From the NCBI GenBank assembly GCA_022478985.1, contig JAKSZP010017373.1:1-64000 (forward strand): a stretch of 64,000 nt of DNA. Direction: 5' to 3'. Source of the stretch: Massospora cicadina (Eukaryota; Entomophthoromycota; Entomophthoromycetes; Entomophthorales; Entomophthoraceae). The translations under genes and the position numbers were made by a program. This document shows, piece after piece, positions 1-63,675 of this stretch. The notes beneath the pieces are model-generated. The model was not told where the DNA came from and made no database searches. It saw nothing but the letters and a program-made list of their open reading frames with translations. Each line of letters begins with the position of its first letter. The stretch's first letter is position 1.

Positions 1-182
1 AATAGGAGGCTAGGCGTTTTGCATGCCCTTAGTATCAACCTGGGCTTGCTTGGCTTGCACCCAGCGTTGATCTAAGGTGTGCTTCAAGTCAGGCAGAGCC
101 TGAAGCTTCATTTTCTGGGCCTCCTGTCACCCAGCCTTGTTCCTAGTATCAATGCCTACTATCATGTCATCTAACCATGACA
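1..182 (-). mobile_element. Family A LTR, truncated by window edge
   Basis: The sequence matches the first 180 bases (minus-strand orientation) of the solo family A LTR at 18067-18963 and ends in the same TGACA terminus. It interrupts a gag remnant that resumes at 183, so it is an insertion whose other end lies outside the window. On the minus strand it contains the LTR-borne reading frame with the D-Q-R-W-V motif described for families A and H. Confidence 0.8.
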
Positions 183-11783: not shown

Positions 11784-13204
11784 TGTCTTGAAAACAGCAG
11801 AAGAAGTTTAAAATGGCCTGTCAGTCAGAATGTGTAAGCACCCAAAAAGCAAGCCAGAATGCCAGAGGCATTGCCGCACATATGACGTTGTATGAAGCCA
11901 TGAATTGGGAAACGATATACCATTTGTGTAAGGCAATTGTGAACAGCTACCTAAGAACAAACCAAATGGAGACAGCCCCAGACACTGGGGGTCTTGCTGC
12001 AGGGGGCGGTACCACAGGTATATTTTCTAAAAGGTCACTTGTGCAGGTTCAATTCAACTGAGGATACAAGGGGGCGGATACTTGCTCGGAAATGGTGGAT
12101 GTAAGGCCACAAGATCCCAGTATTTTGTTGGCGGATATTTGAAATAATTGGGTTGAATTGCCAGAAGTATATAGCACGCTGAATCAGTTGACGATAGTTG
12201 GGGCCATAGTGACCATCAGTACTGGTAAAGCCCATCTGGTATAAGGACTGACAGGCCACCATAGTAAAGCCATTGGGAATGTGGCCAGAAGGATATCAAT
12301 AAAATCAAAAATTGATAGTTTTTAGTGGCAAATTTTATTTAAAGGAAAGTGAAGAAAATTGACCAACAATTTTTTCAGTGTGATGCACTAATTAGTGGAC
12401 AATTGATGTGGGAACAAGAAGGTATCAGGTCCCTCAATTTCTACCTAACAAGAAAAATATTTGGGGATGTGGCAGATAAGCTCAATGGGAACTGACATCA
12501 AAGAATTCAGCAGCAGGCTGGGTTACTGTCAGTTTGACCTCGAACGCCCAAACTGAGGCTCAACTGCATTTCCAAAGTTTGGCGCAACAGCATCTGGCCC
12601 AATGAACAGAGGGAATCCCCAGGGCCACCCCACGTAGGGGTGGTCCCGTTTGGTTGGAAACAGGTATAGTATGCCCAACATGCCCATGCCCAGTCGCTGG
12701 ACCATTCATTTGGTCAAAAGCGTTGTCAGCCACAACTCCCAATTTGCCATAAGGAAGCTTTGAACTTTCATTGATGGTGTCCAATGCTACTAGCTGCATG
12801 TCAGGGATCATCCCTGACAATTTTGATAGGGGGTTAATTTTAACGATTGCACTGTTGGCTAAATCAATACGGTTGGCGATTCTGGCCAATTATCAACCTT
12901 TATCCCTTCTTAACTATGTGAATTTTTATCATTGGGCTTGTTTCTAATCGTTTTCAGATTAATTGACTTCAGTTCAGAAATCTCCATGCAGATTTCCCTG
13001 ATCAGACGTACAAGTTCAGCTGAGGTGAGTGTGGGCACTGGGGGAGGGATCTGAAGAGGGAAGGTTTTTACCCAGCGCTCATCTATCATGTGGGCGAGGT
13101 CACCCTGGGTAATGAAGGGTACAGTCACCCTCTTCATAACCTTTTTACTCGGAAATGGGAAGAGGGCCTGATTGATACACAGGGGATGTTCCCCGGGACT
13201 TACA
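11784..13204 (-). mobile_element. 3' LTR of element F
   Basis: In minus orientation it begins TGTAAGTCC at 13204, directly after a purine-rich AAAAAAGGAAAGGGTAA tract. It ends at 11784 (plus strand TGTCTTG). It aligns with the 5' LTR at 17668-20002 and the solo LTR at 50534-51681. Its first ~650 bases are protein-coding (see 12560-13296). Confidence 0.88.
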
Positions 13205-13296
13205 TTACCCTTTCCTTTTTTCAACAGAAGAGCACCACCACCGGGGAACTGCATGAGGGCCACATTTTTTTGCACTTTTGGTAACTTAATCGCCAT
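12560..13296 (-). pseudogene. LTR-straddling reading frame of element F
   Basis: An ATG at 13296, just past the pol stop near 13302, opens a frame that reads through the polypurine tract (as K-K-G-K-G-N) into the 3' LTR at 13204 and stops at 12910. After one frameshift the same protein resumes at 12889 and runs to 12560. The same frame is recognisable in the 5' LTR (19535-19888, unbroken across that shift) and in the solo LTR (51185-51406). Conserved blocks are G-D-L-x-H-M-x-D-E-R-W-V, P-P-P-V-P-T-L-T-S-A-E, and V-x-A-L-D-T-x-N. I see no domain I can name, no signal peptide and no membrane segment. It could be an extra element protein or the relic of a longer pol tail. Confidence 0.6.
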
Positions 13297-13301
13297 TACA
13301 G

Positions 13302-13484
13302 TCACAATTTTTTGGGGTGTGGGGAGCGTGTGTGGTGGGATTTGTGAAATGCTTCAACCAGTTCCATGCAGTTAGAACAATTGCAAGCCTTAACCCAACT
13401 GTTCTCATAAGCTGGATAACCCTTCCAGGACATGATATATTGAATGGACTGATGGGACTTGTGGGATGCTAGGATATTTTCCAC
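13302..13484 (-). pseudogene. Element F chromodomain
   Basis: The frame contains Y-I-M-S-W-K-G-Y-P-A-Y-E-N-S-W-V and ends E-L-V-E-A-F-H-K, the signature of the C-terminal chromodomain of chromovirus integrases. The first aromatic cage position and two Trp residues are visible. It lies downstream of integrase and separated from it by a decayed stretch (13485-13750). The stop at 13302 sits six bases before the start of the LTR-straddling frame. Confidence 0.85.
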
Positions 13485-13749
13485 TTTGGCTTTTCCACAT
13501 TTTCAATAACAATCGGCTCAGGAGCCGCAGGAACAGTGCTCTTAAAGGGTGACAACTGGAAACGCGGAAGATGGTGCGCTGTTTCTAGTGGGCTGGAAGT
13601 TTTAACCAGAACTCACCATTGCCCAAGTCTTCCTCCACCAAATGGGGGCTCAAATGCTTACCTGCAAACTTATGGGAGGGTACTTGCATTCTTAAATGAC
13701 ACGTATCAAGCATAACATATGAGCCCACCATTATGTTATGAACTGGGAG

Positions 13750-17440: not shown

Positions 17441-18066
17441 GAACTTTATTCCAGAATAAAAGGAGGGGAGAGGTAGTAATCCATGAGGCTCTGACAGCCT
17501 GAAGAAGTTTCTCCAAGGTAGAGCAAATACTAAACCACAAAATTAAGTGACCAAATGAACAACAAAAAGCAGATTACTGATTGTAAGTTCACTTGGTAGA
17601 GAGTAACCACTGCGACGCCCACCTCAAAGAGCAGGGCGGAAGTGGCAGAACAATGGTTGATCAATTATTTCATGAAAATGGCAGAAGATGTTTAGACCAG
17701 CCTGCCAGTTGGAATGAGTAAGCACCTAAAAAGCAAGCCAGAGTGCCAGAGGCATTGCCACATGTATGACGTTGTATGGAAACATGAATTGGGAAACGAT
17801 ATACCATTTGAGTAAGGCAATTGTGGACAGCAACCTGAGAAAGAACTAAATGGAGACACCCCAGACACTGGGGGTCTTGCTTCAGGGGTGGTACAACAGG
17901 TATATTTTCTATAAGGTCACTGGTGGGCAGGTTCAATTCAACTGAGGAGACAAAGGGGCGAATCCTTGCTTGGAAATGGTGGATGTAAGGCCACAAGATC
18001 CCAGTATATTGTTGGCGGATATTGGAAATAATGGGGTTGAATTACCAGAAGTATCTAGCACGCTGA

Positions 18067-18963
18067 TGTCAAGAGAGTGTCTGTAACTCTCTTGTTCCCA
18101 GCAAAGTGATGTGGAGCGTGAACCCACATTGCTAGGGAACTAGCCATTAATAGAATGGGGAATGAGGCACCTAGAATGGTGCTTGAGCAGGAGGTAACCC
18201 AGGCGGGGGTGGAAAGCACCACATATGAGAACAGATAAGTAAGAAACCTCCCAACTTGAGTAGACACCAACGGGGTGTCCATAGTCGAGATTAACTTGGA
18301 GTGAGTAGACTTAGGTGTTTTGGTCTGGAGGGGACCTAAACGGCCCAAGAAAGCACCTGGAATTTGTGTAAATTGTGATAATAGGTAGTGGCCCACATAG
18401 TTGGAGACCATCCTGAAGAGGTCCACCACCATGTTCGCCCAAGGAACCATTGTAAAAAAACGTAAAGTAACGGTTAAATTTTCTTTAAAGAAAGTCGACC
18501 AACAAGGAATGTTGGTCACAAAAATGTATTTAAAATGTGCCGGGGAAATTTGGGTTCTGAGGAAATGCACCCAAGCCTTGATGCTCCAATAAACAGATGC
18601 TTCCTCCCATTTTGGTAAAATACACCAAAAGTGCCTTCACTCAAGTAATCGATTGAAGCCTTATTTTACCTGAAGTCAAAATTTCATAGCTGGAGCGGGA
18701 CTTGAACCCTTGCTCTCCAACCAAGCGAATTGAACCATTTTCATTTAAAATGTAAATTGTTCGTTTCAAAGCCTGGGCCAAGATAAGAGGCTGGGCGTTT
18801 TGCACCCCATTAGTATCAACCTGGGCATGCTTGGCTTGCACTCAGCGTTGATCTAAAGTTTTCTTTAGGTCAGGGAGAGCCTGAAGCTTCATCTTCTGGG
18901 CCTCCTGTCACCCAGCCTTATCCCTAGCATCAGTGCCTACTATTATGTCATCCAACCATGACA
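18067..18963 (-). mobile_element. Solo LTR, family A, TSD gctga
   Basis: The insert starts TGTCAAG and ends ATGACA on the plus strand and is flanked by perfect gctga duplications at 18062-18066 and 18964-18968. It is related to the LTRs of element H (32651-34181 and 62787-63675). The comparison with the empty site in the 3' LTR of F is exact at the TSD. The orientation is set by the coding frame in its first 320 bases (minus strand), as in H. Confidence 0.93.
18641..18963 (-). pseudogene. LTR-borne reading frame of family A
   Basis: From the first bases of the LTR (minus strand, 18963) one frame runs for about 107 codons with two in-frame TGA codons, ending at 18641. It contains W-L-D-D-I-I-V-G-T-D and L-P-D-L-K-K-T-L-D-Q-R followed by a TGA where the H copies have Trp. 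The frame corresponds to the one at 34036-34260 that starts upstream of the 3' LTR of element H. A stretch at 18691-18736 also resembles the D and T arms of a tRNA, but it lies inside the coding frame. Confidence 0.55.
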
Positions 18964-19534
18964 GCTGAATTCAGTTGACAATGGTTGGGGCCATAGTGAC
19001 CATCAGTACTGGTAAAGCCCATCTGGTATAGGGACTGACAGGCCACCATAGTAAAGCCATTGGGAATGTGGCCAGAAGGATATCAATAAAATCAAAAATT
19101 GATAGTTTTTAGTGGCAAATTTCATCTAAAGGAAAGTGAAGAAAATTGACCAACAATTTTTTTTCAGTGCGATGCACTGATTTAGTTAGTGGACAATTGA
19201 TGTGGGAACAAGCAGGTATTGGGTCCCTCAATTTCTACCTAACCAGCAAAATATTTGGGGATGGGGGAAGATAAGCTCAATGGGAACTGACATTAAAGAA
19301 TTAGGTGGCAGGCCGAGTCACTGTCAGTTTGACCTTGAACGCCTGAACTGAGGCTCAACTGCGTTTCTAACAGTTGGCGTGATGGCATCTAGCCCAACGA
19401 GCAGTGGGAATCCCCCAGGGCCACCCCTCGTAGGGGCGGTCCCAATTGGTTGGGAATGGGTTCAGGATGCCTAACTCGCCCATGCCCTGTTGTAGGGCCA
19501 TTTGTTTGGTCAAAAGCGTTGCATCAGCCACAAC

Positions 19535-19888
19535 TCACAATTTGCCATAAGGAAGCTTTGAAATTTCATTGATGGTGTCCAATGCTACTACCTGCACATT
19601 GGGGATGATCCCTGACAATTTTGAAAGGGGGTTAATTTTGACGATTGCACTGTTGGCTGAATCAAAACTGTCAGCAATTCTGGCCAATGAATCTCCCTTC
19701 ATCCCTTTTTGAATATGTGAATTCCGATCATCAGGCTTGTTTCCAATTATTTTTTGACCAATTGACTTCATTTCAGCGATCTTGGTGCAGATCTCCCTGA
19801 TCAGATGTACAATTTCAGCTGAGGTGAGCGTGGGCACTGGGGGAGGGATCTGAAGAGGTAGGGCTGTTACCCAGCGCTCGTCTACCAT
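19535..19888 (-). pseudogene. LTR-borne reading frame in the 5' LTR of element F
   Basis: A 117-codon open frame starting M-V-D-E-R-W-V and including P-P-P-V-P-T-L-T-S-A-E and N-P-L-S-K-L-S-G-I-I-P. It is the copy of the frame at 12560-13296 and shows that the two halves there were once continuous. Being in the 5' LTR, this copy has no upstream start and is not expected to be expressed as such. Confidence 0.6.
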
Positions 19889-20002
19889 GTGGGTGAGGTC
19901 ACCCTGGGTGACGAGGGGTACAGCCCCCTCTTCAGAACCTTTTTACTCGGAAATGGGAAGAGGGCCCAATTGACACACAGGGGACATTCCCCAGGACTTA
20001 CA

Positions 20003-25818: not shown

Positions 25819-28800
25819 TTAGGGTTCGGAGTCGGATTGGGGTTCGATAGATATTACCTGGTTGGCGTTTGCGGAGGAATTTTGATCCGGATTCGGGGCG
25901 AGTAGGGCGAGCAGGGTGTTGGGGGCGAAGTAACCTAAGGCGTCGATCTCGGGGTTGACGAGGTGGGGTTGGATGGGTTTGATCTGTAACGGGTTGAGGA
26001 GTTGGATGAGCCTTTGACGTTTGTCGCGCTCGAACTCGGCCCACCGCCGCATCACGATGTGGGAGGAGTCGAACTCCCCGTCCTTATCCCCGTGCCCCTT
26101 ATCGTTGGCGGATTCGCCCTGGACCATACGGGTCTGACCCCAGCTGAAGTCGTCAAAGTGCCAGTACGCGTAGGTGGGTAGCACAAAGTTCCAGATGGGT
26201 AGGGAGAGCAGGTAGATCAGCATCCACCCCACGTATACGAACTTGCGGGTGGTGAACGCGATCAGTACCGCGGGTAAGCCGAGGATGGCGGCCAATAATA
26301 GCAGCGGGATGATGGGGACCGGGCGGGTGAAGAAGGAGATGACGATGAGGTAGAGGGTGAAGGTGATGGCGGCGGGGAGCACCACCGTCCCCACCAGCTC
26401 CATAAATATGACAAACTGCATCGAGAAGCAGAAGGTGCCGCACAGATCTCGGATCAGCACCAGCTCCAGCAAGTTGTGGACGGTGGAGTTGATCCAGCGC
26501 CGGCGTTGCGACAGTAGAACCCCGAACTCGTCCGGGACGATCGTCTTGCACACCGCCTGGGGGACGAACAGCATCTTGCGCTTGGGGAAGGTGCGCAGCA
26601 TCAGCGTGGTGAGGTACCGGTCCTCACCCAGCAACAGCAGGTTCTTCTTGTGCAAGGTGTCCACCACGTTCTCGCTGTAGTTCTCAACGATGTCGGGGTT
26701 GGCTAATATGGGGACCCAGTAGCCATGGGTCCCCTTGGGGGCCTTGATGCGGTACATGCAGAAGCACCCCGGGAGGCAGGTGACGCCACCAAAGATCGAT
26801 TCGAAAGCCTTACTCATATGGTGGGAGATGTAGTACTCGAACACCTGGATCATGGTCACCCACGAGTCCGTCTTATTTGCGATCTTCGTCTCGCCGCACA
26901 GCCCCATGACGGCGGGATCCCGGACCATCACCGCCACCATCTTGGTCAGCGAGTCCGGGTACACCTTGGTATCGGCGTCCACCATCAGCACGATCTCGTA
27001 AGAGTCCGGGGGGACGCCGGTGACCCCCCACATGGCGTTGAACATCTCGTACTCCAACTCCGAAAGCCGCTCGTCGAACATGATGCGCTGCAGGAAGCCC
27101 ATCAATATGATCTGCCCATCACGCTTGCCGCGGTTACCGGGTTTGGCCATAGAAGCCTCCTCCGGCGTCCCCACCTTCACCACCAGCACCATCGGCACCC
27201 GAACCTGCATCTCCATCGGCACCGTCAAGTCGTCATAGTTGTAGTACCCCGCATACACCTTGGCCATGTTGTGGCGCTTCTTGCCGTCGGCAATCGCAAC
27301 GTAGGAGTACGCCCCCACCTTCTCGGGCGGGATGACGAAGTCCTTCATCATGGAGAGGCAGATGTCGGGCGTCGACGCCTCGTTGCCCGCCCCGACGATG
27401 ATGCCGTCGCATACCACGTATAGGAGCTTGTGCGAGGCTGGGTAGTCGGTGGTGGCGAGCGAGTCGAACGTCGTGCGGAGCCCCTGGATCCCCTCCGAGT
27501 AGCACGTCACCAATAGCAGCGTATGGGCCAGCGGAAAAGAGTACGGCTGAAATCCCGGGGACGGGGGTGCCGGCGCCCAGTGGCGGGATGTGACCAACGC
27601 ACCGAACGTGTCCTCCCCCTCCCGCAGATCGAGCGCGGAATCGGGGCGCGGAACCCCCGACGTGCGCCTCGGGGCTTGGGCCAGCGAGGACGAGGTGCTG
27701 TTGCGGCCCGTCAACGAATCGGTTGCGGGGCCGGCCATGAGGGACAGGCCGATGTTACGCTTCCTTCCCGGCATATCCCCGGGGAGGGGCGTCGAGTAAC
27801 GGCTGGTCTGGGGGAGAAAGTTGGCGCGCTTGGAGCTGGCTGGCGGTTGCCCACCGCCCAAAACGTTGAGGGTCGAGAAGCGAGCCTGGTTCGGGATTGA
27901 GGTGGCGATATGGGACCCGTTGGACCAGCTCTCAATCTCCTCCAACCGCTGCTGCCGCTCCTCGCGCGTCTCCTTCTTAAGGGCGCCCAACCGGTGGCTC
28001 AGCACCCACCCAAAGAACAGCGCCATGAAGAACTTTACAAATACCACCCCCAGTATCACGATCAGGGATACATAAAGGATGATGTTGGAGCTGATACACC
28101 CAATCGGTTGCGTATCGAGCACACCGACGCGTAACAGCTGGTCCATGCACCGCCCCAGCGCGGGGTTATGGTTGGCCACCAGGTACGACACGTCCCGGCC
28201 GCGGTTCCCGGAGCTTGGATCCGTCACCTTAACAAATTCTTCCGAGATCCGCACGCCGTCCAGCATCCAATCGAGGCGCGCCAAATCCAGCACCCCACCG
28301 TTGTAGACCAGATACCGGGACGATGCGCGGTGGATATCGTCCCACGTGAAGTACAGGTCGCCCACCATCGGCAGCCTTTTAAGCACGCCCGAGTTAATGC
28401 CGGTATGGCACCCACGGTGTTCGGGATTGAGGTTACGGTCCGGCACCGTATCCCGGCCCACCGCAACGCACGGGAACGCGGTGACGGGCCCCTCGTTGGG
28501 GGAATCGTTGCTGATCAAGGTCACGACATTGCGGCAAGCTTTGGCCAAGTCCTGAAACATGAAGGAGATATCCTTGCCGCCGGCCTCCGGGAAGGGCGTA
28601 GCGTTGAGCGGGCCCCCCTCAGGCCACGCGTCGACGGAGGGGTGGTGGAAGCGGGAGATGTTGTATACCCGGCCGTTCGCCGCGACGAGGTCAGGACCCA
28701 AACCCCCCTTAAAGGGGAGGCGGTAGGTGAGGGCGGCGGAACCGCACAACACCTGCTGCAGGCCAAAGGTCAGGAACCCCACCGCTAGGCACATCGTAAA

Positions 28801-29274
28801 GATGATCGTGACCAAAGCCATCTTCTCCCGCCAAGCCTGCCGCACCTCGCTGGTGTGCATGCCCATCATCCTCAGCATAAACGCGGGGGCGTAGAAGGTG
28901 GCTATGTAAGAGAAGATGACCCAACAGCTAAGAGGTTTCGACTCGGAGGGGAGGGCGGTGGCACCCTTGCTTAAGGAATGGAGGCGGCGGGTCGGTTCCA
29001 TAAAGTCGCGTTTAAGGCTGCGCTTGCGCTTATCGATGGTGCGGGCGCGCTCGGGTCGTACGAGGGAACGCTGGCGCCCGACGTGACCCCCAACCTCGCC
29101 CTGATGGCGCGACAGCTTACGTTTTAAATTTTGGTAGAAGGGCTCCTCATTCCCCAGCAGCGGGGAGCGGGATCTCGAGGCGACGACGGGCGGGGTGGGA
29201 TTAATCTGGGGGCTGGTAGCCGGTAAGTTGGGTTCCTTTGGCAAGGCCGAACCCTGTAAAGGATCCGACTTCAT
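25819..29274 (-). CDS. Chitin synthase, class IV (Chs3-like)
   Basis: An uninterrupted 1151-residue frame starting at the ATG at 29274. Chitin synthases polymerise UDP-N-acetylglucosamine into chitin at the plasma membrane. The N-terminus is basic and Ser/Pro-rich; membrane segments lie at about 117-137 and 151-172. A cytochrome b5-like region (N-G-R-V-Y-N-I-S-R-F) follows near residue 200, then another membrane segment near 400. The glycosyltransferase core has D-A-D at 766-768, E-D-R at 884-886 and Q-R-R-R-W at 923-927, all catalytic hallmarks and all intact. Several membrane segments follow near 940-1060. The class is inferred from the M-G-M-H-T-S-E-V-R-Q-A-W block and the b5-like region. 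Length is typical of class IV. No intron is needed to read it through, which is uncommon for a basidiomycete gene of this size. It is the only clearly functional gene here, with high CpG and GC content unlike its surroundings. Confidence 0.96.
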   Translation of the reverse strand: MKSDPLQGSALPKEPNLPATSPQINPTPPVVASRSRSPLLGNEEPFYQNLKRKLSRHQGEVGGHVGRQRSLVRPERARTIDKRKRSLKRDFMEPTRRLHSLSKGATALPSESKPLSCWVIFSYIATFYAPAFMLRMMGMHTSEVRQAWREKMALVTIIFTMCLAVGFLTFGLQQVLCGSAALTYRLPFKGGLGPDLVAANGRVYNISRFHHPSVDAWPEGGPLNATPFPEAGGKDISFMFQDLAKACRNVVTLISNDSPNEGPVTAFPCVAVGRDTVPDRNLNPEHRGCHTGINSGVLKRLPMVGDLYFTWDDIHRASSRYLVYNGGVLDLARLDWMLDGVRISEEFVKVTDPSSGNRGRDVSYLVANHNPALGRCMDQLLRVGVLDTQPIGCISSNIILYVSLIVILGVVFVKFFMALFFGWVLSHRLGALKKETREERQQRLEEIESWSNGSHIATSIPNQARFSTLNVLGGGQPPASSKRANFLPQTSRYSTPLPGDMPGRKRNIGLSLMAGPATDSLTGRNSTSSSLAQAPRRTSGVPRPDSALDLREGEDTFGALVTSRHWAPAPPSPGFQPYSFPLAHTLLLVTCYSEGIQGLRTTFDSLATTDYPASHKLLYVVCDGIIVGAGNEASTPDICLSMMKDFVIPPEKVGAYSYVAIADGKKRHNMAKVYAGYYNYDDLTVPMEMQVRVPMVLVVKVGTPEEASMAKPGNRGKRDGQIILMGFLQRIMFDERLSELEYEMFNAMWGVTGVPPDSYEIVLMVDADTKVYPDSLTKMVAVMVRDPAVMGLCGETKIANKTDSWVTMIQVFEYYISHHMSKAFESIFGGVTCLPGCFCMYRIKAPKGTHGYWVPILANPDIVENYSENVVDTLHKKNLLLLGEDRYLTTLMLRTFPKRKMLFVPQAVCKTIVPDEFGVLLSQRRRWINSTVHNLLELVLIRDLCGTFCFSMQFVIFMELVGTVVLPAAITFTLYLIVISFFTRPVPIIPLLLLAAILGLPAVLIAFTTRKFVYVGWMLIYLLSLPIWNFVLPTYAYWHFDDFSWGQTRMVQGESANDKGHGDKDGEFDSSHIVMRRWAEFERDKRQRLIQLLNPLQIKPIQPHLVNPEIDALGYFAPNTLLALLAPNPDQNSSANANQVISIEPQSDSEP

Positions 29275-32650: not shown

Positions 32651-32796
32651 TGTCAAGTGAGTTTTAGTAACCCGCTCATTCCCAGAGAGGCGGTGGGTAA
32701 TGCCACAACATTAACAGGGAATGACATGATAATACCATAGGGAAGAGGGACCCGTGGTGGGGGTCAACATCAAATGGACTCAAGGGGAGTGTGTAA

Positions 32797-33437
32797 CCTA
32801 TCACTTAATAAAACACATTCACGGTCTGACTGACATACTGACTGATGTGCTGACAGAATGACTGACATCTGAAACCTTTGAGTCTGATAAGTTCAATCTA
32901 TTTAGGCGAGTAAGTGAGAATAGGTGAATATTATCAAATCTGAAACCTTTGAGCCTGATAGGTTCACTCTATTAGATGAGTGGGTGAGAACTGGAGAATA
33001 TTATCGAATCTGAAACTATTGGGTCTTCTAGATCAACCTATTTAGATAGTGGGTGAGAATTGGCAAATATTATCAAATAATCTACCAAATTGCTCACCCA
33101 AAACTAAAAACAGTTAGAGTTTTAAGTGTATGATTAATTAAATTTAAGTTAACCAGCTCACCAGCCATGAGGGCAACAGCAGGGCTGTTAGTCCAAGTGG
33201 TTCAAGCATAGTACTGGCACACCCTTTAGGCTATATCAGTGGAGCCCATAAACCAAAGCAACGCTGGGTAACTCTACTTTCTTAATAATCTTAGTATAAG
33301 AGCTAAAAATAAATGATTGGAATTGGTCAGCTTTATAGGGGCTGAATGAAATTTGATCATTGAGCTTCACATACCATAACAGGGTTGGGTTATGGGTATA
33401 ATAAATTATCAACTCAAGTGACACTGGTTAAACGGCT
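32797..33437. other. Insert in the 3' LTR of H
   Basis: Absent from the other H LTR, it begins after a shared GTGTAA and ends before a shared CATTATATAAATGAC. It holds a CTGA-rich tract (32825-32866) followed by a 70-bp tandem repeat, then about 360 bp without recognisable features. The flanks (ctatcact and ctattcat) are only loosely alike, so a TSD is doubtful. Confidence 0.6.
32867..33076. repeat. Three tandem units of about 70 bp
   Basis: Each unit starts ATCTGAAAC and ends AATATTATC(A/G)A: 32867-32938, 32939-33008 and 33009-33076, boundaries approximate. The units have diverged from one another, mostly by transitions, so the array is old. Confidence 0.85.
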
Positions 33438-34035
33438 ATTCATTATATAAATGACGAGATAAACAATAAAGTGGAGGACTTAGTTAAGCCCAGAGAGCAG
33501 TCCATTAGTAAGTGCAGGTCGGAATCCAGGTCCTTTGGGACCTCTATCTGTAGAGGTCCAGGATTTTCCAGAGGGGAGTGAGAGTCAGTATACTATTTAG
33601 ATAAAATAAAATGACCAATGTTATATAGGACCTCTAAAGGAGGTCTGCACACAGTTCAGCTCAAGGGATCAGTTGATAAAATGTAAAACTAATGGCGTTT
33701 TTATATAAAGCAAGTTGACCAAAAATAAGGTTGGTCACCAAAAATAATTGTTAAACAGTTTGGGGGATCATTCATCAGGTGAGGCGCTGAGCCCTAATGA
33801 CCCAATAAAAGTAGCTTGCCATCAACTTTGTGCTGTAATTTGAGTAAGTCTGAAATCAATTGATTTGAATGAGGCTGAATCTTTCCAAATTAGTGAAATT
33901 AAAAACTGAAATGGTCTCAAAACACTTTTCTCCAATTAAATGCAAACTACTGTTAAGATTTTTCATGTAGATGGTGCATTTTAATGCAATGGATGTAACA
34001 CTCATCTGACCATCACGTGCACCCCCAGAACCAAC

Positions 34036-34260
34036 TTAGTCATCATATCTTACCTCTACCCAGCGTTGGCCCAGGGTGTATTCCAGGTAAGGTAAGCTTG
34101 CTAAGTTATTCCTCTTGGCCTCATCACACCCAGCCTTGTCCTTATTATCTGTCCCTTCTATGATGTCATACAACCATGACATTACTCTCCAGCCTTTTGG
34201 TGCTCCACCCCAAGGGGCTTCAGCCAGGGAAAAGTTCTTATGGGAAGGGGCTAGTTTCAT
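34036..34260 (-). pseudogene. LTR-straddling reading frame of element H
   Basis: An open 74-codon frame starts with the ATG at 34260, 79 bases before the 3' LTR, crosses the purine-rich AAAAGGCTGGAGAGTAA tract and enters the LTR at 34181. Inside the LTR it reads W-L-Y-D-I-I-E-G-T-D and L-G-Q-R-W-V, matching the solo family A LTR (18963 down), the LTR fragment at 1-182 and, after a frameshift, the 5' LTR of H (63675 down). The layout is the same as in element F. I recognise no domain. Confidence 0.6.
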
Positions 34261-34468
34261 GGCAGCAGTACTTGGTTTAGGCTAGTGTCCTTCTGCCTCA
34301 GGGAAACGCTCATAAAAGGCATCAATCAGGTCCTGGGCATGGATGCAATTGCATGCTGGTACCCAACTGTTCTCCATTGCATCATATCCCTTTCATGACA
34401 ACATGTACTCAAGCCTTCTTCTTACACGACGAGGGGCTACAATATACCCCACTTCCCAATCTGGTGTC

Positions 34469-35660
34469 CTATCCATGAGGTATGCCTCTAGGGTCTCTAA
34501 TGTGGGGACCCTCAACCAACATCAGCTTGCATTTATGAAACAGGGGGAAGATCCAGAATGATGGAGGAAGATCCAACTGGTATGAGTCATGACCCACCTT
34601 CCTGACAATTCTTAAGGCTCTATCTTCTTGAGCCTCACTTTTTTTGCATGGCTGCTTGATTGGGATATTTCTAGCATCAAGCGTCACATGATCCCCCTAA
34701 TTGTATGCTGAACCTACCCATCTCTTATCATCAGCGTTCTCCTTGCAAGTCTGCATAGCTACATCCAAAAAGTGTTGACCCCTTTGTGTGCATTCTTGAT
34801 TGTCTTGGCAAAGCCCACCACCACTTAAAAATTGGACCCACAGCTGGGCTCCATGTTAAACAGGGTTAAACTTATAATTGGTGAAGAATGGGGAACACCC
34901 AATTGAAAAGCATGTTGTGCGTTGTTATAACTTAATTGGACCATGGGAAGATGGGAAGCCCAATCAGAATGGTTTGCAATAGTGTATCCCCACAAAATCT
35001 GTTCAAGGCACTGGTTCACTCGTTCTGTTTTCCCATCAGATTAAGGGTGGTAGGCACTAGAACGGCAGGGAAAAATCTAAAGAGTTTTACTCAACTCCTT
35101 CTAAGATACGGATGTAAGTTGGAATCCACAGTTGCTAATAATCTATTGGGACACTTAATGGAGGGAAAACATGTGTGAACCAAATGACATCCATATGCGC
35201 CACCTTTTAGTGTTACATTCCATAAATTGTCAAACTTAGAAAATCAGCAAACCACTATCATGATAGCATCATAACCCCTGACAAGGGCAGCTTCACAATA
35301 AAATCAATGTTTTGAGAAGTCCAGAGTCCTGCTGACTTTTAGATAAGCACCAACAACCCTACAAGAGGTTGCCAATTCGGTTACATCCTATTGCAAACCA
35401 GGATCCCTTAAATACCTCGTCACCGGTGAAGCCAGACACTTCCAGTTATATGTCTGTCATATCAGCTCTAAAATCTCCATCCTTACCAGGTGCCCTAAAT
35501 TTAGGTCATCATGATGTTCCCTAATCACTTCCAAATGGAGAGGCCCCGCAAGAACCCATAGACGCCCCTGAAACAATATTATCTCATCCTTTACATGATA
35601 CCATTTGGATGCATCCTCCTGATTAAACTTGCATCTGGCCAGCACATTAATATATTGCAC
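34469..35660 (-). pseudogene. Element H integrase
   Basis: Blocks on the minus strand in order: an N-terminal zinc region (I-R-E-H-H-D-x-x-L-G-H, 35457-35660), a core remnant with N-Q-C-L-E-Q-I-L and L-P-M-V-Q-L-S-Y-N-N (34825-35019), and a C-terminal block P-S-F-W-I-F-P-L-F-H (34469-34687) like the S-x-x-F-H-V-S-x-L tail of Ty3 integrases. The middle is too broken to see the first two catalytic Asp residues. No chromodomain is visible. Confidence 0.7.
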
Positions 35661-35783: not shown

Positions 35784-36190
35784 TCAGATGGGTGTTGTGC
35801 AACTCCACCTCTTTAGAATCAGGGGTAAAGCAGGGTTCTGACTGAAAGCGTTAGCCAAACCATTCTCTGTGTCCTTTGCGAACTCATAAAAGAACATAAA
35901 TTGATCAAGGGTCTCATACCACTGGGTTTGCCATGGTATTAGATCATGAGGAGCCTGGTGGTACAATAAGGTGTGATGATCTGTCCAATTGCGAAATGGC
36001 TTGGAAGAACATGTTGATGATGGCGCCAGAGGTTAGCTCTTCCACTATTGCCAACAGTTCTTTGCCATAAATAGTGTAGTTTAACTTGGGCAGGGTCATT
36101 TTCTGAGCAAAATACCTCGTGGGATGCTCAGCTTTATCTTCCCCACCTGAAAAAGTGCAGCAGCTATGGCGAAGTTGGAAGAATCTGTGG
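35784..36190 (-). pseudogene. Element H RNase H
   Basis: Just left of element B, the minus strand reads T-D-S-S-N-F-A-I-A-A-A-L-F, the first strand of Ty3 RNase H (family T-D-A-S). At 35784-35966 it continues as W-Y-E-T-L-D-Q-F-M-F-F-Y-E-F, the connection to integrase. The frame is broken between. Confidence 0.75.
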
Positions 36191-37356
36191 TGTTGGGATT
36201 TTTGCCCATATTCCCAGCCTGCTAGATTACCTGGTATTGCTAGGGGAAAAATTCCCTAAGGTGAAGTGAATTGGAAATTGGTTGACCTGAATTTTGGAGG
36301 AACTATGTTTGGGGGATTTTAGGATATTTATCTGGTCATATCCATTGGGGATCAATCTGGATGAATACCTAATATCTCATCGGGTGGAGTGGCTGACAAA
36401 ATAAGGGCATCTGATAGTAATTAACTATCAGGTGTACCGATTGGGATCAGTCAGGTTTCATCACCAACTGATTGGGAATGTTTAATGAGTTGTGAGGCGA
36501 GTGATGCCACCTGCAACTAGCAAATTGATTGGTTGCTAGCCAATTATGGATGATTTGCTTGGATCGAGAGGAAAATGTTAATGATACATTTCTGACTCTT
36601 TCATTTGAGGTCTCGAGGATGTCTAACATCAGAATCCTAGTCAGGATGGGGAAGACCATCGCTGCCAAGATGAGGAAGGGTGATTCAATGGCAACGGCTG
36701 CCATTTCATCAAAAGAGGTGTCAACTGAGGGTTAGACAGCTGAATCCCCTATAAATTCCCTAGAATTCACTATAATAAAAACACTTGAAAATAGTAGTAA
36801 AGTAGTATAGTAGTAAAACACTCAAGTATTACACTGGAAAATACTCACTGATTGACACAAGTTTATGGTTGGGAAAGAACTAATAAAGAACCTTATTAGT
36901 TTGACTGTAGATTTGGTAATAGTTAGACTATCAGCATCTAGCGTGAAGATTCCATCTCAAGGATATTATTGCAGAAGGCAATAATTGGTAGACTCTCAGA
37001 GAAGAGTAGAGATCCGAAGTGGGGATCTAGAGATGAAGGGAACCACAGCTAAGGGATTGCTGCTGACTGTGTGTTGGGCCAAAGGGACTGTCATCAGAGG
37101 ATCTTAACAAAGATTGAGTGGACAGGATTTAGGGAACAAATCCCTAAGAGTGCGATATTCAGTATTATCAGAAATACCGGCCAAAGCGTTGGGCCTGAAG
37201 ATAATTCTAACTCAACTATGGATAATAGTCATCATACTATTATTGGATTATATATATTCTTACAACGCGAGGTGCACGAGGAAACTGAACCTGTGCAGTA
37301 GAAAGATTACTAGGGTTGACCTCCAATAAATCAACCCAACAAAGTAAATTTTTACA
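36191..37356 (+). mobile_element. 5' LTR of element B
   Basis: Begins TGTTGGGATTTTTGCCC and ends TTTTTACA. An open minus-strand frame (36447-36704) is also present in the 3' LTR but broken in the solo copy at 5319-6435, so I do not call it a gene. Confidence 0.92.
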
Positions 37357-37359
37357 AGT

Positions 37360-37377
37360 TGGTGCTCACTACAGGGG
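37360..37377 (+). other. Primer-binding-like site of element B
   Basis: TGGTGCTCACTACAGGGG, three bases after the 5' LTR. It would pair with a tRNA whose last bases are CCCCTGTAGTGAGCACCA; the G-C-A-CCA end is like elongator tRNA-Met of some fungi, but this is only a guess. Confidence 0.75.
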
Positions 37378-37403
37378 TAGTTGAGTAGAAGAATTAATCC
37401 AGA

Positions 37404-38676
37404 ATGTTGTACAAAGAGGAAATGCGTAGGTTGTGGACTGAGATTGCCACAGTGAACCAGAACGCTTTAAACTCTGTGGACCACTGGGAGTTTGTGGCCT
37501 TGGAGGAATGAGTAACCAAGGTGGAAGAAGGAGTTGACAACGTAGCCAACTTTGGGAATGAGTTACTTGGCAAAGTAAACTCGTTAAAGAAGAAAGAAGG
37601 AGACCTCATCTGAGAGATCCTATTTCTGAAAATGGAATGTGAAGTGGATCACGTTCATTTGAGAAAATTTGGTGCAGACATTGAGAAGTTATTAAAAGAA
37701 GTAGAGAAATTGAAAGCACACAGAAGTGCAAGTGAGTCAGACATGGCCAATGATGTCAAAGAAGGAAGTCTTTCAAATGATACTTGGGAAAATGAATACC
37801 CCAAGAAATATGCCACCCGCATTCAATGCTATTTTGGAGATGACGCCTGATGACACTCCACAAGTAAACTGAATAGCTGAACTGAGAGAGTCAGCCTGAA
37901 CTGACTTGGAGGAATTTAGGGCAACCCCTAAATTGCCTACATTTCATTGGGATAACGCCCCAGCATTTTTCTGACTATTTGACATGACCATGAATGGATA
38001 TGGGGATCATCAGAAGGCGTTGATGGTCATGAACTGCTTAAACACAGATTGTCAGAATCTGGTGTTACCCCACCTGGAGGGGGACAGCTGGTCTTATGCT
38101 GAGGCTAAGGCAGCAATAATGAAGGAATTTGGCAGTCCAACCTGCATGTCAAAATGCAAGCAAGACTTTATGGGAATTCAATTCTGTAAAGATGAGTCCC
38201 TTGCAAGCTTTGCAGATTGATTCTACCAGGAATCACAGATCCTGGCTGGAGCGAAGGTGTTAGATGACTTTGATGCAAGAATCGCTTTGCAAGTGGCCCT
38301 TCAGCCCTATCGTGATTTGCATCAAATGATGTCTACTGTATTTGCGACTGAGATAACTACCTCGCAAATGGTAGACAATTTGAAGATTTTGGGAGCAACG
38401 TTTGATGCTCCTAATAGAAGCTTCAAGTCAAATCTGGTCCAAAGTTTGAATCCCACAAAGGGAGGCGAAGGAGCAAAGGAGACTTTTAACCAAACTGTGC
38501 TGGGGAAAAAGCCTGAGGATTACAATCAGTTAAACAAGAAGGAAAAGGTCTGCTTTCAGTGTGGCGGGAAAGGGCATTTCGCCGCACACTGCAAAACGCT
38601 GAAGGATCAAGTTCATATGGTCCAGGCTAAGGAAATAGCAGCCACGAAGGATTTGGGAAAAGGTCCCACTGTCTAG
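37404..38676 (+). pseudogene. Element B gag
   Basis: The ATG at 37404 opens a frame with TGA stops at two places where CGA fits. One frameshift near 37845 moves to the frame of 37984-38676, which ends at a TAG. The first 150 residues are charged and heptad-like, probably a coiled coil. A capsid-like part follows, with D-E-S-L-A-S-F-A-D and Y-R-D-L-H blocks. A CCHC zinc knuckle (C-F-Q-C-G-G-K-G-H-F-A-A-H-C) is at about 38551-38592. The knuckle binds element RNA. All four metal ligands are intact. Confidence 0.88.
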
Positions 38677-38693
38677 ACAAGGAACAGTCTAGG

Positions 38694-39531
38694 ATGGCGG
38701 AGAAACCTGTTCCTCCCAATGTTATGAATGAAGAAATAGATATCAGCGATCTGTTTGTGGATGATGAGCAGGATCCAATATATCAAGTGGTCAACATGGA
38801 CATAAACGCTGTGACCAGAGCTGGGGTGAAGAAGATTGACCCTGAGATAGTTCAGGAGGTTGCCTGGCTGTACGCCTGACAACTGGTGGAGAAGATTTGG
38901 ACTGCCAAAAATCCTGATGAGTTAACTGATATTCAGGTTAGATGAGGCCAACCTGTCGATTCCCCTTGGCACAATTAAGGAATCATTTCCTGAATTATTG
39001 GCGCAGATAATTAATACCCTAGATTTGGCTAATAACGCCGCAATTCACTCAGTAAATACCCTATTACAATACTCTGAGTGTACATATATAGATATTCAGG
39101 TGAATTGAGTAAGGGTATGGGTGATAGTTGACAGCGGAGCGCCCATCAACATTGTGTCAACCAAGCTGGTGAAGAAGATGAAGATCTCTCCAGACTTGGA
39201 ACACAAGAAGGAATATGGAACAGCTGGGCTGAACACCACCATTTCCTGTGGAGCGTATAGTGTGCTGCCACTATGATTTGGGTCATTGGTGGTATCCGCG
39301 CCAGCAATAGTTTTGGTGAATCAAAACTATGATATCCTGATCAGAATGGAGTTTCTGCGGAAATATGGAGTTAAATGTAACTTTGAGGATAATATGTTGA
39401 CCATCCTGGGTCAGACGTTACCATTGGTATATCAAAAGAATGGTGAAGTTCCGTTGAACTGGAGAAATAATTTCATCAACTTGATATACAATGATGGCAT
39501 TGTACCTGATTCAGTACCAATTAGTTGGTAG
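38694..39531 (+). pseudogene. Element B pol start and aspartic protease
   Basis: Pol opens at 38694, in a different frame from gag and 18 bases after its stop. The leader contains N-x-D-I-N-A-V and D-P-E-I. After a frameshift near 38945, the protease active site reads V-I-V-D-S-G-A-P-I-N-I-V (about 39120-39155), an intact D-S-G. Its C-terminal part is open at 39286-39531 with Y-D-I-L-I-R-M-E-F. The frame has TGA stops at 39107 and 39274. Confidence 0.82.
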
Positions 39532-39544
39532 GAAGTGATGGGAG

Positions 39545-40092
39545 ATGCTGGCTGAGATCCTAGAGAACTGGGGAATTCCTTTGTGGATCAAGAAAGAAGA
39601 AACCATACTGGCTGGATTGCAGATGATAGTTGACACAGGGTTGACTCTAGAGATTCTGGAGTTGTTGTATGGAGAAGTTGGAAGCCCCTGGAAGAAGTCC
39701 AGAGTGGAGCCTTGGGTGGCTCCTGGGATAATTATGCTGGGCCATGGAGAAATATGAGTTCTCTTGGCGAATTTAAGTGAAAAACTGATGAAGATTAAGA
39801 AAAATCAAATCATTGCATTTATTCATTTAATCCTGATGGCAGAATTGAGATGATTCCATGATTTTGGATCTCTTGAGGAAATGGGATTACCAGCTGGAGT
39901 GGCCAAAAGCATCAACTTATTAGTTGATTGAGAGCAGCTCGCAGATCTGCCAGAAGGGCAGAAGGAGGAGGTGCTCAAATTATTTGAGAGATATTGGGAA
40001 ATATTGTGCAGGATGATCACAATTTGGGATGTGCGCAAGGCGTAATTCACAAAGTTGACACTGGAGAAAATTTACCAATAAGAATGAGACTG
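39545..40092 (+). pseudogene. Element B protease-RT linker
   Basis: A decayed stretch with a 70-codon open part (39545-39757). Acidic and without recognisable motif; it occupies the place of the dUTPase-like domain of J, C and D, but shows none of its blocks. Near 39990-40060 an L-F-E-R-Y-W block may be the start of the RT domain. Confidence 0.5.
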
Positions 40093-40101
40093 ATCTGAAG
40101 A

Positions 40102-40860
40102 TTGAAAGCTGCCAAAGTGGTAGTGGAAGATGAGATCAGCAAACTAGTAAAGCATGGGCTTCTAGTTCCGTCGTCAAGTCCCTGGGCAAGCCCAATTTTG
40201 ATCATAAAGAAAAAAGATGGATCAAATTGGGTAGTGATTGACTATCAGAGGCTGAATAAAATTATGAAGAAGGATTTGTATCCCCTACTGAGGATTGATG
40301 ATGTGCTAGACCAATTAGGAGAAGCGAAGTATTTCTCCGCGATGGACCTAATCTTGGGATACTGGCAGATTGACTTGCCAGCAGAGGACCAGGAAAAATG
40401 TGCGATTATCACCGCACAGGGGTTATACCAGCTGACTAGGATGCCCCAGGGTCTCTGTAATGCGCCCGCGACGTTCCAGAGGGCCATGGACGCGGTATTA
40501 AGCGACCTGAAGTTGTCATGCATCTTGGTATATCTGGATGATATAAACGTGTTCAGTAGGACGTTTACTGATCACCTTCAGCACTTGGAGGAAGTGTTTA
40601 AGAGACTGTCCGCGGCTAACCTGAAGATCAAGCCACGGAAGTGCCACTTCTTCAAGAAGGAGCTTGAATACCTGGGATTTGTGATCAATGCAAATGGATT
40701 GCAGCTGCAACCCCAGAAGATAGCAGCTATTGAAAAGATGGCTGTGCCAAAGAGTGTCTGAGACATCCAAGTATTCCTTGGGATGGTCAGATACTATAGA
40801 AGATTTATTTGGGACTTCGCCCAAATAGCTGAGCCCTTATTCCATTTATTAAAGGATCCA
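40102..40860 (+). pseudogene. Element B reverse transcriptase
   Basis: A 219-codon open frame covers the fingers and palm: L-V-P-S-S-S-P-W-A-S-P, V-I-D-Y, F-S-A-M-D-L (motif A Asp), R-M-P-Q-G-L (motif B), and V-Y-L-D-D-I (active-site pair). All catalytic residues are intact. The first stop is TGA at 40759, where the conserved V-R-D-I-Q calls for CGA. The thumb continues to a run of A at about 40858, where the frame shifts into RNase H. Fitted with few changes, this is the best-preserved RT here. Confidence 0.93.
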
Positions 40861-41345
40861 AAAAAGGATTCATATGGAATGAAGAGGCTCAGGACTCCTT
40901 TGATGAGTTACGCTGGTACTTGATAAATTCGCCAATTCTGAAATATCCAAATTTTGATTGGGAGTTTATCATTCAAACTGATGCTTCATTGATGGCGATT
41001 GGCGCCATACTGAGCCAAGTAGATGAACTTGGGGATGAACATCCGGTGGCATATGTGAGCTGGACACTCTCTGCCGCAGAGAGGAATTACACCATAACTG
41101 AGCGTGAATGCCTTGCAGTCATTTACGCCTGTAAACAGTTTTGGGTGTATGTCCATGGAATGCACTTTAAGGTGGTGATGGACCACTCTTTGTTGCATTG
41201 GCTGCACAATCTGAGGGAACCTGAAGGATGACTGGCCCGATGGGCACTCAAACTTCAGGCTTATGATTATGAGATAGTCCACTGAGTGGGGGCTTCTCAT
41301 CAGAACGTGGATGGCTTATTGCGGTTACCAATGGTCCAGTTGGTA
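40861..41345 (+). pseudogene. Element B RNase H
   Basis: Open at 40920-41231 with I-I-Q-T-D-A-S, T-E-R-E-C-L-A-V and V-V-M-D-H-S-L-L, the catalytic D, E and D of Ty3 RNase H, all intact. TGA codons at about 41228 and 41283 replace probable CGA. Confidence 0.9.
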
Positions 41346-41399
41346 TATCCGCAGGCGGATGAGCTATTCCAGAGAATGGTCAAAGGAAGAATTGAGGAT

Positions 41400-50533: not shown

Positions 50534-51681
50534 TGTCAGGCAAACAGCAATTTAGAATTAGACTGGCCTGCCAGCCTAGGTGCTGGAGCACCCAAATGGC
50601 AAACCAGAATGCCAAAGGAACTGCTGCTGGTAAGACAGATATGAAACTAGAAAAGAGTTTCACCAATAACTGCCAGTGAGCCAGAATCTCGTACAGGCAT
50701 ATAATAAAATACCAGACAATATGGCTGTTAACCCCAAGGGGTGTGTGAATGTCATCAGAAAAGGAGGTTTATTTTCAACATTAAAAAAATTTTGGTAAAG
50801 CTTTTAATAGAAAATAAAGGAAGAAAAATTGACCAAAAATTTTCTCAGTGTGATGTAACTGACTAAACAGTGGTCAGAAGATGAGGAAAAAGCTGGGATC
50901 AGGTCCCTCAAGTTTAACCTAACTGGCAAATTATTTGGGGATGGAGGTAGATAAGATCAACGGGAACTGACATCAAAGGATTCAGCAGCAGGCCGATCCA
51001 CTGTCAGTTTGACCTAGAACGCCCAAACTGAGGCTTGACTGTATTTCCAATGGTTAGCGTGATAGCATCTGGCCTGACGAGCAGCAGGAATCCCTCAAGG
51101 CCACCCCACATAAGGGCGGTCCCAATTGGTTGGGAACAGGTTCAGGATGCCCAACCCACCCATGACCAGTTGCTGGGCCATTCATTAAGTCAAAAGCGTT
51201 GTGTTGGCTGCAACTCCCAATTTACTGGAAGGTAGCTTCAAACTATTGTTTTTGGTGTCCAATGCTATTACCTTTAAGTCAGGGATCATCCATGACAATT
51301 TCAAGAGGGGGTTACTTTTGACAATTACACTGCTGGGTGAATTGAAACCATTGGGGATTCCAGTTGATAACTCAATCTTCATCCCTCTTTGGCTATGCGG
51401 ATACAATTGTCAGGCTTAATTTCCGTCAGTTTCAGAGTGATCAATTTTAGTTTGCAATCTTGGCACAGGTTTCTGTAATCTATCTAACAAGTTTGGCCAT
51501 GGTAAGCAAAGGTACCAGGGGAGGGGTCCAGAGAGGGAAGGCCATTACCCAACGCTTGTCTACCATGTGGGTGAGGTTGCCCTGGGTGATGAGGGGCATG
51601 TCCACCCTCTTTCACCATTATTGCTCGGAAACAGGAAGAGTGACCAATCTATGCACAGGGGGACGTTCCCCTGGACTTACA
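50534..51681 (-). mobile_element. Solo LTR, family F, TSD accag
   Basis: It begins TGTCAGGCAAACAGC and ends GGACTTACA, as the LTRs of element F. Perfect 5-bp duplications accag lie at 50529-50533 and 51682-51686. It splits the conserved L-L-V-P block of the RT of element D. It carries a copy of the LTR-borne frame (51185-51406). Confidence 0.95.
51185..51406 (-). pseudogene. LTR-borne reading frame in the solo F LTR
   Basis: A 73-codon open frame with N-P-L-L-K-L-S-W-M-I-P-D and V-I-A-L-D-T-K-N-N-S-L-K-L-P, clearly the same protein as at 12560-12889 and 19535-19888 despite substantial divergence. Upstream (51590-51480) a broken part still shows T-Q-G-N-L-T-H-M-V-D-K-R-W-V. Confidence 0.6.
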
Positions 51682-62625: not shown

Positions 62626-62786
62626 GGTGAGAATAATGATAAGCTGAACCAACAGTAAACCAAACAAAAATGCTGTGGTAAGCAGCATAGTGACCGTGAC
62701 AAATGGACAGCGTACCCAGTTGACACTAAGATAGAGCCACATGCAGAGAATTCTAATGCACATATATTAGAATGGTTGGTCAACTA

Positions 62787-63675
62787 TATTAAGAGAGTGT
62801 ATGAAACCCTCTCATTCCCAGAAAGGTGGTGGGGAATGCCCTATTGCACCAACTGGGAACAACCTGCTAATAGCATAGGGAAGAGGGCTCCACAGAGGGT
62901 CTAACACAAAAAGGACTCAAGGAGAGGGTGTAAATCATTATATAAATGACAAGATAACCAAAAAAGTCGAGGACTTGGTTGGAATTCAGAGAGGAGTCCA
63001 TTACTAAATGAAGGTCAAACCAGGTTCTTTGGGCCCTCTATCTGTAGAGGTCCAGTCTTTCAAGAGAGGAGGGAGATTCAGTATACAATTTAGATAAAAT
63101 AAAATGACCAATATTATTTGGGACCTCCCCAAGGAGGTCAGCGCACATATCAGCCCAAGGGACCATTTAATAAAATGTAAACTAATGAAGGGTTTTTATT
63201 TAAAGAAAGTTGACCAGCAAAGAAGGATGGTTATCAAAAATTATTATTAAACACTTTGTGGGGCATCATTCATCAGGTGAGGCGCTGTGCCCAAATGAAC
63301 CAATAAATGCAGCTTGCCACTAGCTGTTGTACTGTAATTTGAGTAGGTCTAAACTCAAGTATTTGACTGAAGCTTTATTTTCTCAGGTTTAGTATAATTA
63401 TAAACTGAAAGGGTATCAAACCACTTTTTTTAGTTGAATGCAAACTACTGTTATTATTTTGCCATGTAGATGGTGCGTTTTTACGCTGTGGATGTAATGC
63501 TCATCTACCCACACATGTTACCCCCAGAACCAACTTAAACATTTGAACTCTAACCCAGCGTTGCTCCAGGATGTTCTTCAGGTCAGGTAGGCCTGCTAAC
63601 TTAGTCCTCTTAGCCTCATCGCGCTCAGCCTTGTTTTAAAATATGTCCCTTCTATGATTTCATTTAATCATGACA
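62787..63675 (-). mobile_element. 5' LTR of element H
   Basis: The plus strand starts TATTAAGAGAG (family TGTCAAGAGAG) and ends ATGACA, followed by taaag. It aligns with 32651-34181 outside the insert there. The minus strand of its last 135 bases carries the LTR-borne frame with E-Q-R-W-V after one shift. Confidence 0.85.

What the first reader, a model, noticed from the sequence alone, without database searches (positions are those of the whole stretch)
34036..34260. A second family (H/A) has the same LTR-straddling layout, with a shared R-W-V motif
Seen: in H a frame starts 79 bases before the 3' LTR, crosses the purine tract and enters the LTR. Family A LTRs at 1-182, 18067-18963 and 62787-63675 carry the same frame. 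Both families contain D-L-x3-hydrophobic-x-x-R-W-V: in F as G-D-L-A-H-M-I-D-E-R-W-V, in A as P-D-L-K-N-I-L-E-Q-R-W-V. F and H also share the primer-site type that differs from B, C, D and J. Inference: a conserved small protein, or a pol tail, is encoded across the 3' LTR boundary in a whole lineage of elements.
Basis: partly seen in the sequence, partly recalled or inferred. Interest (0 to 1): 0.82.

Follow-up and report, generated by a model that had tools for sequence, protein, structure and literature searches.

The report
Retrotransposon polymerase tail encoded inside LTR
In a very large fungal genome, two related retrotransposon families carry the last 100 to 200 or so amino acids of their integrase-bearing polyprotein inside the terminal repeat that also holds their promoter; a similar layout is known from plant centromere retrotransposons.

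Summary
In H (minus strand) the frame 34260-34036 continues the chromodomain frame of pol (one stop between them in this decayed copy), crosses the purine tract and enters the 3' LTR at 34181. Some fetched A/H copies have one open frame from the integrase SH3 domain through the chromodomain into the LTR. A stop stands at LTR codon 145 in 27 of 32 aligned LTRs, just before the presumed RNA start, so most of U3 would also be coding. Outside the query stretch third codon positions vary most (p=2.6e-5). The two tails share a pre-LTR stretch, the R-W-V motif near LTR codons 40-45 and a self-priming-type primer site. In F the fusion is in frame in some copies and shifted in others at a variable C/A tract. 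Plant CRM group A elements are a published precedent for pol reading into the 3' LTR: a new variant of a known kind. The tail's function is inferred.

The parts
34036..34260 (-). H: the reported frame, post-chromodomain pol tail crossing the LTR boundary
   Evidence: 149 non-self scored genome matches
34285..34470 (-). H: chromodomain remnant at the end of pol (approximate bounds), same frame as the tail; one in-frame stop between it and the tail and one inside it in this copy
   Evidence: PF00385 E=1.7e-4, 21.9 bits against a cut-off of 25.1, on its 36-aa open piece; frames
33856..34005 (-). H: continuation of the same frame in U3 after a stop at 34036
   Evidence: same frame, aligned with A2
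32651..34181 (-). H: 3' LTR (TGTCATGG...TTGACA), enlarged by about 500 bp of inserted repeats
62787..63675 (-). A3 = 5' LTR of H
62771..62786 (-). H primer site TAGTTGACCAACCATT
63208..63218 (-). A3 LTR stretch complementary to the primer site (10 of 11), LTR nt 458
18067..18963 (-). A2: solo A-lineage LTR with the U3 frame
1..182 (-). A1: A-lineage LTR fragment with the U3 frame
12913..13353 (-). F: 147-codon open frame crossing the purine tract into the 3' LTR
13341..13487 (-). F: chromodomain (other frame than the tail in this copy)
   Evidence: PF00385 E=1.3e-10
11784..13204 (-). F: 3' LTR
17668..20002 (-). F: 5' LTR (with A2 inserted); open tail frame 19538-19942
17652..17667 (-). F primer site TAATTGATCAACCATT
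50816..51681 (-). FL: third F-type LTR with the tail frame

Best explanation
The frame is the C-terminal end of the Pol polyprotein of a lineage of chromodomain-bearing Ty3/gypsy elements (chromoviruses) that appear to be self-priming. Shown by sequence: in some A/H copies pol reads without a break from the integrase SH3 domain through the chromodomain, about 36 codons including the purine tract, and on into the 3' LTR, in one fetched copy to LTR codon 145; in F-lineage copies the homologous tail is in frame with the chromodomain in some and shifted in others. The shared R-W-V motif lies at LTR codons 40-45. Inferred: genomic RNA starts near LTR nt 455-468 (A/H), where the primer-complementary stretch lies, so U3 occurs in that RNA only at its 3' end and the tail is made only as part of full-length Pol; U3 then serves as promoter in the 5' LTR and as coding sequence in the 3' LTR, reverse transcription keeping both copies equal. 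Most likely the tail rides on the integrase as an extra C-terminal module next to the chromodomain, acting in choice of insertion site or in the integration complex.
For: Frame continuity: of 29 non-self loci (the best-scoring of 149), 19 have the chromodomain WKGF-type motif in the tail's frame and 9 have no stop from it to the LTR start. One natural 323-codon frame (L016) contains SH3_Tf2-1 (4.9e-13), Chromo (1.6e-14) and then the tail; a 415-codon one (L030) begins in the integrase core (rve 0.052, below cut-off) and also has SH3_Tf2-1 and Chromo. L054 (F) joins chromodomain and tail in one 382-codon frame. The LTR start is real: a near-full 5' LTR starting at base 1-9 in 14 of 20 fetched regions. 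Coding signal outside the query: columns 135-330 vary .249/.226/.357 at codon positions 1/2/3, p=2.6e-5; no significant excess at 450-620 (p=0.14) or 620-890 (p=0.92). pN/pS over 465 pairs: codons 1-46 0.28, 47-107 0.60 (other frames .89.96), 109-144 0.72 (.89.89), nt 450-620 0.83, nt 720-880 0.97. Stop at codon 145 in 27 of 32. A and F tails are related: pre-LTR H vs F tail frame score 45, 0 of 1000 shuffles reach it; A1 vs F3 50, 0 of 1000; hhalign E 7.6e-6, probability 66. The primer site finds its best complement in the LTR at nt 454-468 in 11 of 14 elements.
Against: The genome copies were found with a protein query spanning the boundary, so in-phase joining over the query and the 0-135 signal are biased; a sample drawn by DNA pattern alone could not be fetched. 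10 of 29 loci lack the chromodomain motif in frame. In F, the window copy and 2 of 4 fetched copies have chromodomain and tail in different frames at a length-variable C/A tract, and 69 of 150 genome matches (window copy included) begin within the first 5 query residues, as the shifted copies do. In an undirected 150-nt window test of window LTR pairs, few tail windows stood out (A2/H 0 of 5, A2/A3 1 of 6, F5/FL 0 of 6, F3/FL 0 of 6) while a pol coding pair gave 8 of 13. Non-coding LTR parts reached dN/dS 0.43-0.55 in single frames. A2 and H alone against F did not beat shuffles (7-28% of shuffles reached them). The coding signal after codon 108 is weak, and codon 108 itself is a stop in 16 of 32 copies. 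No transcript or protein evidence; the role in targeting is analogy only.
Confidence: 0.9

Rival explanations
1. A separate small accessory protein (an arrangement like HIV nef, recalled): its own ATG after the chromodomain, read from a subgenomic or spliced RNA and ending in U3.
For: In the window H has a stop and then an ATG, and F has chromodomain and tail in different frames; the first residue is Met in 25 of 30 loci.
Against: 19 of 29 A/H loci have chromodomain and tail in one frame, 9 of 29 with no stop; residues before the Met are also similar between many copies; 5 of 30 lack the Met.
Confidence: 0.05
2. Two forms of Pol by frameshifting: in the F lineage a slippery C/A tract between chromodomain and tail lets some ribosomes reach the tail, so that most Pol lacks it.
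For: 3 of 5 F copies seen (window copy plus L051-L054) have the tail shifted at a C/A tract of variable length, so the shift is not private to one dead copy; the tail stays conserved in the F top matches.
Against: Homopolymer tracts change length readily, also in dead copies; 2 of 5 copies are in frame; no such tract was noticed in A/H; no slip-site test was run.
Confidence: 0.12
3. The start of the LTR is conserved for non-coding reasons (promoter or integrase binding) and the open frame is incidental.
For: U3 is a promoter region, and the LTR edge is constrained by integrase in any case; single window pairs show little codon phase on their own.
Against: Conservation follows the codon phase and fades where the frame ends; four other LTR pairs of the window show no phase beyond chance (1 of 19 windows at p=0.05).
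Confidence: 0.02

Closest known systems
Plant CRM clade, group A centromeric retrotransposons (PMC3059260)
   Different: In CRM the LTR part is the CR motif in place of a chromodomain; here a Pfam-positive chromodomain lies before the LTR and the tail comes after it. CRM uses tRNA-Met primers and TGATG LTR ends; these use TGTCATGG or TGTAAGTCC ends and a primer site complementary to their own LTR.
Tf1/sushi and Tcn1 self-priming chromoviruses (PMC6317226, PMC2864245)
   Same: Chromodomain and a primer site complementary to their own LTR; integrase end matching Pfam SH3_Tf2-1.
   Different: No LTR-encoded pol tail is described in the passages seen.
U3-encoded accessory ORFs of retroviruses such as HIV nef and MMTV sag (recalled)
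   Same: Protein coded in U3 of the 3' LTR.
   Different: Those are separate proteins with their own starts; here, in A/H, it is the end of Pol.

Membership tests
Chromovirus (Ty3/gypsy, Metaviridae) | Chromodomain at the C-terminal side of integrase | tested here: met
   PF00385 in F (1.3e-10), L016 (1.6e-14), L030 (2.3e-13); H piece 1.7e-4, below the curated cut-off
Chromovirus (Ty3/gypsy, Metaviridae) | Integrase with GPY/F-type SH3 domain | tested here: met
   SH3_Tf2-1 PF24626 in L016 and L030; rve core in F (6.2e-8)
Tf1/sushi-type self-priming elements | Primer site complementary to the 5' end of the element's own RNA | tested here: met
   Best complement lies in the LTR at nt 454-468 in 11 of 14 elements, 8 of 14 with 10-11 of 11 bases; in 3 of 14 the best site lies elsewhere; the H/F difference is compensated. 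The RNA 5' end itself is inferred; shuffled LTRs reached the H score in 9 of 200 and the F score in 1 of 100
Tf1/sushi-type self-priming elements | Placement by reverse transcriptase phylogeny | not tested
   no tree was built
CRM group A | Pol extends into the 3' LTR | tested here: met
CRM group A | CR motif in place of a chromodomain | tested here: not met
   A canonical chromodomain is present before the LTR; the tail was not compared with the CR motif itself
CRM group A | tRNA-Met primer site and TGATG/CATCA LTR ends | tested here: not met
   LTR starts TGTCATGG or TGTAAGTCC; primer site begins TTAGTTGACC or similar
nef-like separate U3 ORF | Own start, out of the pol reading frame | tested here: not met
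   A/H: 19 of 29 in the frame of the chromodomain; F mixed (2 of 4 fetched in frame)

The most novel reading that the evidence does not exclude
These elements carry a second, previously undescribed integrase module after the chromodomain. It is encoded almost throughout U3 (144 codons in A/H, ending some 20-30 nt before the inferred RNA start), so that promoter and targeting protein are forced to evolve in the same DNA; in the F lineage its production may be regulated by frameshifting at a variable C/A tract.
Probability: 0.35. Interest if true: 0.7.

Novelty: new variant of a known kind. Interest (0 to 1): 0.52.

Why it matters
TE libraries often store LTR and internal parts apart (recalled), which would cut this pol gene and hide its end. 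A U3 that is both promoter and protein also complicates the view that LTR subfamilies diverge only by regulation. It adds a fungal case to the plant CRM precedent, making it testable whether LTR-encoded integrase tails arose more than once and whether they steer insertion. At least 2,626 exact A/H-type junctions lie in this one genome.

Tried and rejected
No relatives elsewhere: IMG/VR scans with the F tail, the H frame, the F integrase and an integrase alignment gave none. Protein searches with the F tail (13 candidates) and with the tail region of L016 (160 candidates) gave none at E<=0.01; only proteins of 0.55-1.75 times the query length are eligible, so full-length Pol was not reached. 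The F integrase did find relatives (23 at E<=1e-5), best in the rust Austropuccinia psidii at 46% identity over 49% of the query. Pfam: none on the 147-aa F tail and the H frame; on the F5 tail frame only sub-cut-off LysM hits (0.004 and 0.0056); nothing on the tail part of L016 and L030; sub-cut-off hits (0.15, 0.18) on the mostly-tail L004 piece. Rfam and ARAGORN: nothing in the window. AlphaFold of the F5 tail with two rows: mean pLDDT 48.8, not used. The early belief that the tail ends at LTR codon 108 was dropped when half of 32 copies proved to have a sense codon there. A copy count of the F junction was not obtained (tool busy).

Full report
WHERE. The window is 64 kb of a 1.47-Gb, 16,968-contig assembly, fungal by a 1,151-residue chitin synthase ORF (Chitin_synth_2, 2.8e-280). 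The F integrase has its best hit in the rust Austropuccinia psidii, at 46% identity over 49% of the query. The species is not identified. The finding sits in a pile of nested, decayed LTR elements.

WHAT IS AT THE COORDINATES. H is one old element on the minus strand, 63675 down to 32651. A3 is its 5' LTR and 34181-32651 its 3' LTR; they are 81% identical over a 756-bp match, with target duplication CTTTA/CTCTA, and the body is split by later insertions. The reported frame (34260-34036) lies after a chromodomain remnant and in its frame, with one stop in between. F (20002 down to about 11784) has a clear chromodomain (1.3e-10) and a 147-codon open frame crossing its own LTR edge (12913-13353), but in another frame than its chromodomain.

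IS IT CODING? Within the window, substitutions between LTR subfamilies fall on third codon positions: A2 against the shared state of A3 and H, 25/20/43 over nt 0-323 (p=0.002), but 22/15/20 over 326-500 and 34/30/21 over 500-750. dN/dS between subfamilies is 0.24-0.39 in the tail frame over seven comparisons; the other frames give 0.85-2.33 in six of these and 0.49 and 1.49 in the short A1/H one. Non-coding LTR parts gave single frames as low as 0.43-0.55, so no one value is decisive. The two LTRs of one element (A3/H, 0-323) give 0.95 in frame, as expected of decay after insertion. An undirected 150-nt window test was weaker: of the tail pairs only A2/A3 (1 of 6 windows) and F3/F5 (2 of 6) had windows below p=0.05, A2/H, A3/H, F5/FL and F3/FL none; four control LTR pairs had 1 of 19, a pol coding pair 8 of 13.

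GENOME COPIES. The H frame gives 150 scored matches among 32,012 first-look candidates (149 besides itself, identities 56-71%). The best 30 loci, one being the window itself, were read. The LTR start lies in the tail's frame in 29 of 29, but the query spans the edge, so this is expected. The chromodomain motif, outside the query, is in the same frame in 19 of 29, and 9 of 29 have no stop from it to the LTR. L016 has a natural frame of 323 codons with SH3_Tf2-1, Chromo, then the tail to LTR codon 145; L030 one of 415 codons that ends earlier in the LTR. A near-full 5' LTR beginning at base 1-9 was found in 14 of 20 fetched regions (81-96% identity), a partial one in 2 and none in 4; at the 14, target duplications agree in 4 or 5 of 5 bases in 9. 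So the edge is truly the LTR start. In 32 aligned LTRs, columns 135-330, outside the query, vary most at third positions (p=2.6e-5), 330-447 weakly (p=0.09), and beyond 450 without significant excess (p=0.14, 0.92). Codon 145 is a stop in 27 of 32. Codon 108 is a stop in 16 of 32 and a sense codon in the other 16, a mixture that fits CpG decay. pN/pS grades from 0.28 (codons 1-46) through 0.60 (47-107) and 0.72 (109-144) to 0.83 (nt 450-620) and 0.97 (nt 720-880). I therefore take codons 1-107 as surely coding and 109-144 as probably coding. A 19-base pattern of purine tract plus LTR start occurs 2,626 times (1,283 + 1,343; reversed control 0).

THE F LINEAGE. Its tail gives 150 scored matches of 58,573 candidates, 61-75% identical besides itself. 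Of 4 copies fetched (three from the top 8 ranks, one for its long frame, all without stops inside the match, so not a random sample), L052 and L054 have chromodomain and tail in one frame (L052 with a stop inside the chromodomain), while L051 and L053 have them shifted, like the window copy, at a C/A tract of variable length. So for F the fusion is polymorphic and could be regulated; this is the main open point.

RELATION OF THE TWO TAILS. The pre-LTR part of H matches only the tail frame of F (score 45, 0 of 1000 shuffles; other frames 806 and 857 of 1000). A1 and F3 match at the motif (50, 0 of 1000), A1 and the F5 piece likewise (52, 0 of 1000). A2 and H alone against F do not exceed shuffles clearly (73 to 276 of 1000 shuffles reach them). 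The profile comparison gives E 7.6e-6 at probability 66. R-W-V is intact in 24 of 32 A/H LTRs and in 3 of 4 fetched F copies. At DNA level the motif region of A1 and F3 shares 27 of 42 bases, which argues against recent exchange.

HOW IT WOULD WORK. The primer site after the 5' LTR (TTAGTTGACCAACC type; TAATTGATCAACC in F) is complementary to an LTR stretch at nt 454-468 (A/H; best site in 11 of 14 elements, elsewhere in 3) or about 838-850 (F); H and F differ compensatingly. Self-priming is known for Tf1/sushi and Tcn1 elements (PMC6317226, passages). If RNA starts there, U3 is present in genomic RNA only at its 3' end, so the frame can be translated only as the end of Pol; after reverse transcription the same U3 is the promoter. 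These steps are inferred. The tail's role (site choice, chromatin or integrase assembly) is analogy with the integrase ends of CRM elements.

COMPARED WITH WHAT IS KNOWN. Plant CRM group A elements have pol extending into the 3' LTR, where the CR motif is encoded (PMC3059260, section 7 read; passages). The principle is therefore known. New here: a fungal self-priming lineage, a tail that comes in addition to a canonical chromodomain, and its reach into the LTR (144 codons in A/H; about 165, perhaps more, in F, the end not settled; the CRM reach in codons was not looked up). In nine answered literature searches and the passages read I saw no such description for fungi; subscription journals are mostly not held.

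Noticed in passing
25819-29274 (-): Uninterrupted 1,151-residue chitin synthase ORF in a GC-rich island (2-kb windows 0.62 and 0.54) amid 0.34-0.46 GC TE-rich DNA; no intron needed over this length.
   Followed up: partly
900-1130 (-), approximate: Collagen-like GPP-rich stretch within a decayed gag-like region just upstream of the A1 LTR.
   Followed up: no
25263-25459: Near-perfect direct repeats offset by about 38-39 bp (98.8-99.4% identity).
   Followed up: no
36190-45808 (+): Element with 95.7% identical LTRs, the most alike LTR pair I saw in the window, with RT PF00078, inserted in H; no R-W-V tail was seen.
   Followed up: partly
18680-18740 (-): A2 LTR has a stretch resembling a tRNA T-arm and acceptor end (GGTTCAAGTCCCGCTCCAGC); ARAGORN finds no tRNA in the window; it lies inside the tail frame.
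   Followed up: partly
32800-33440 (-): H's 3' LTR carries about 500 bp of inserted sequence with degenerate direct repeats (about 80% alike).
   Followed up: no
13280-13320 (-) and L051-L054: F lineage: a C/A homopolymer tract between chromodomain and tail varies in length, and with it whether the two are in one frame.
   Followed up: partly
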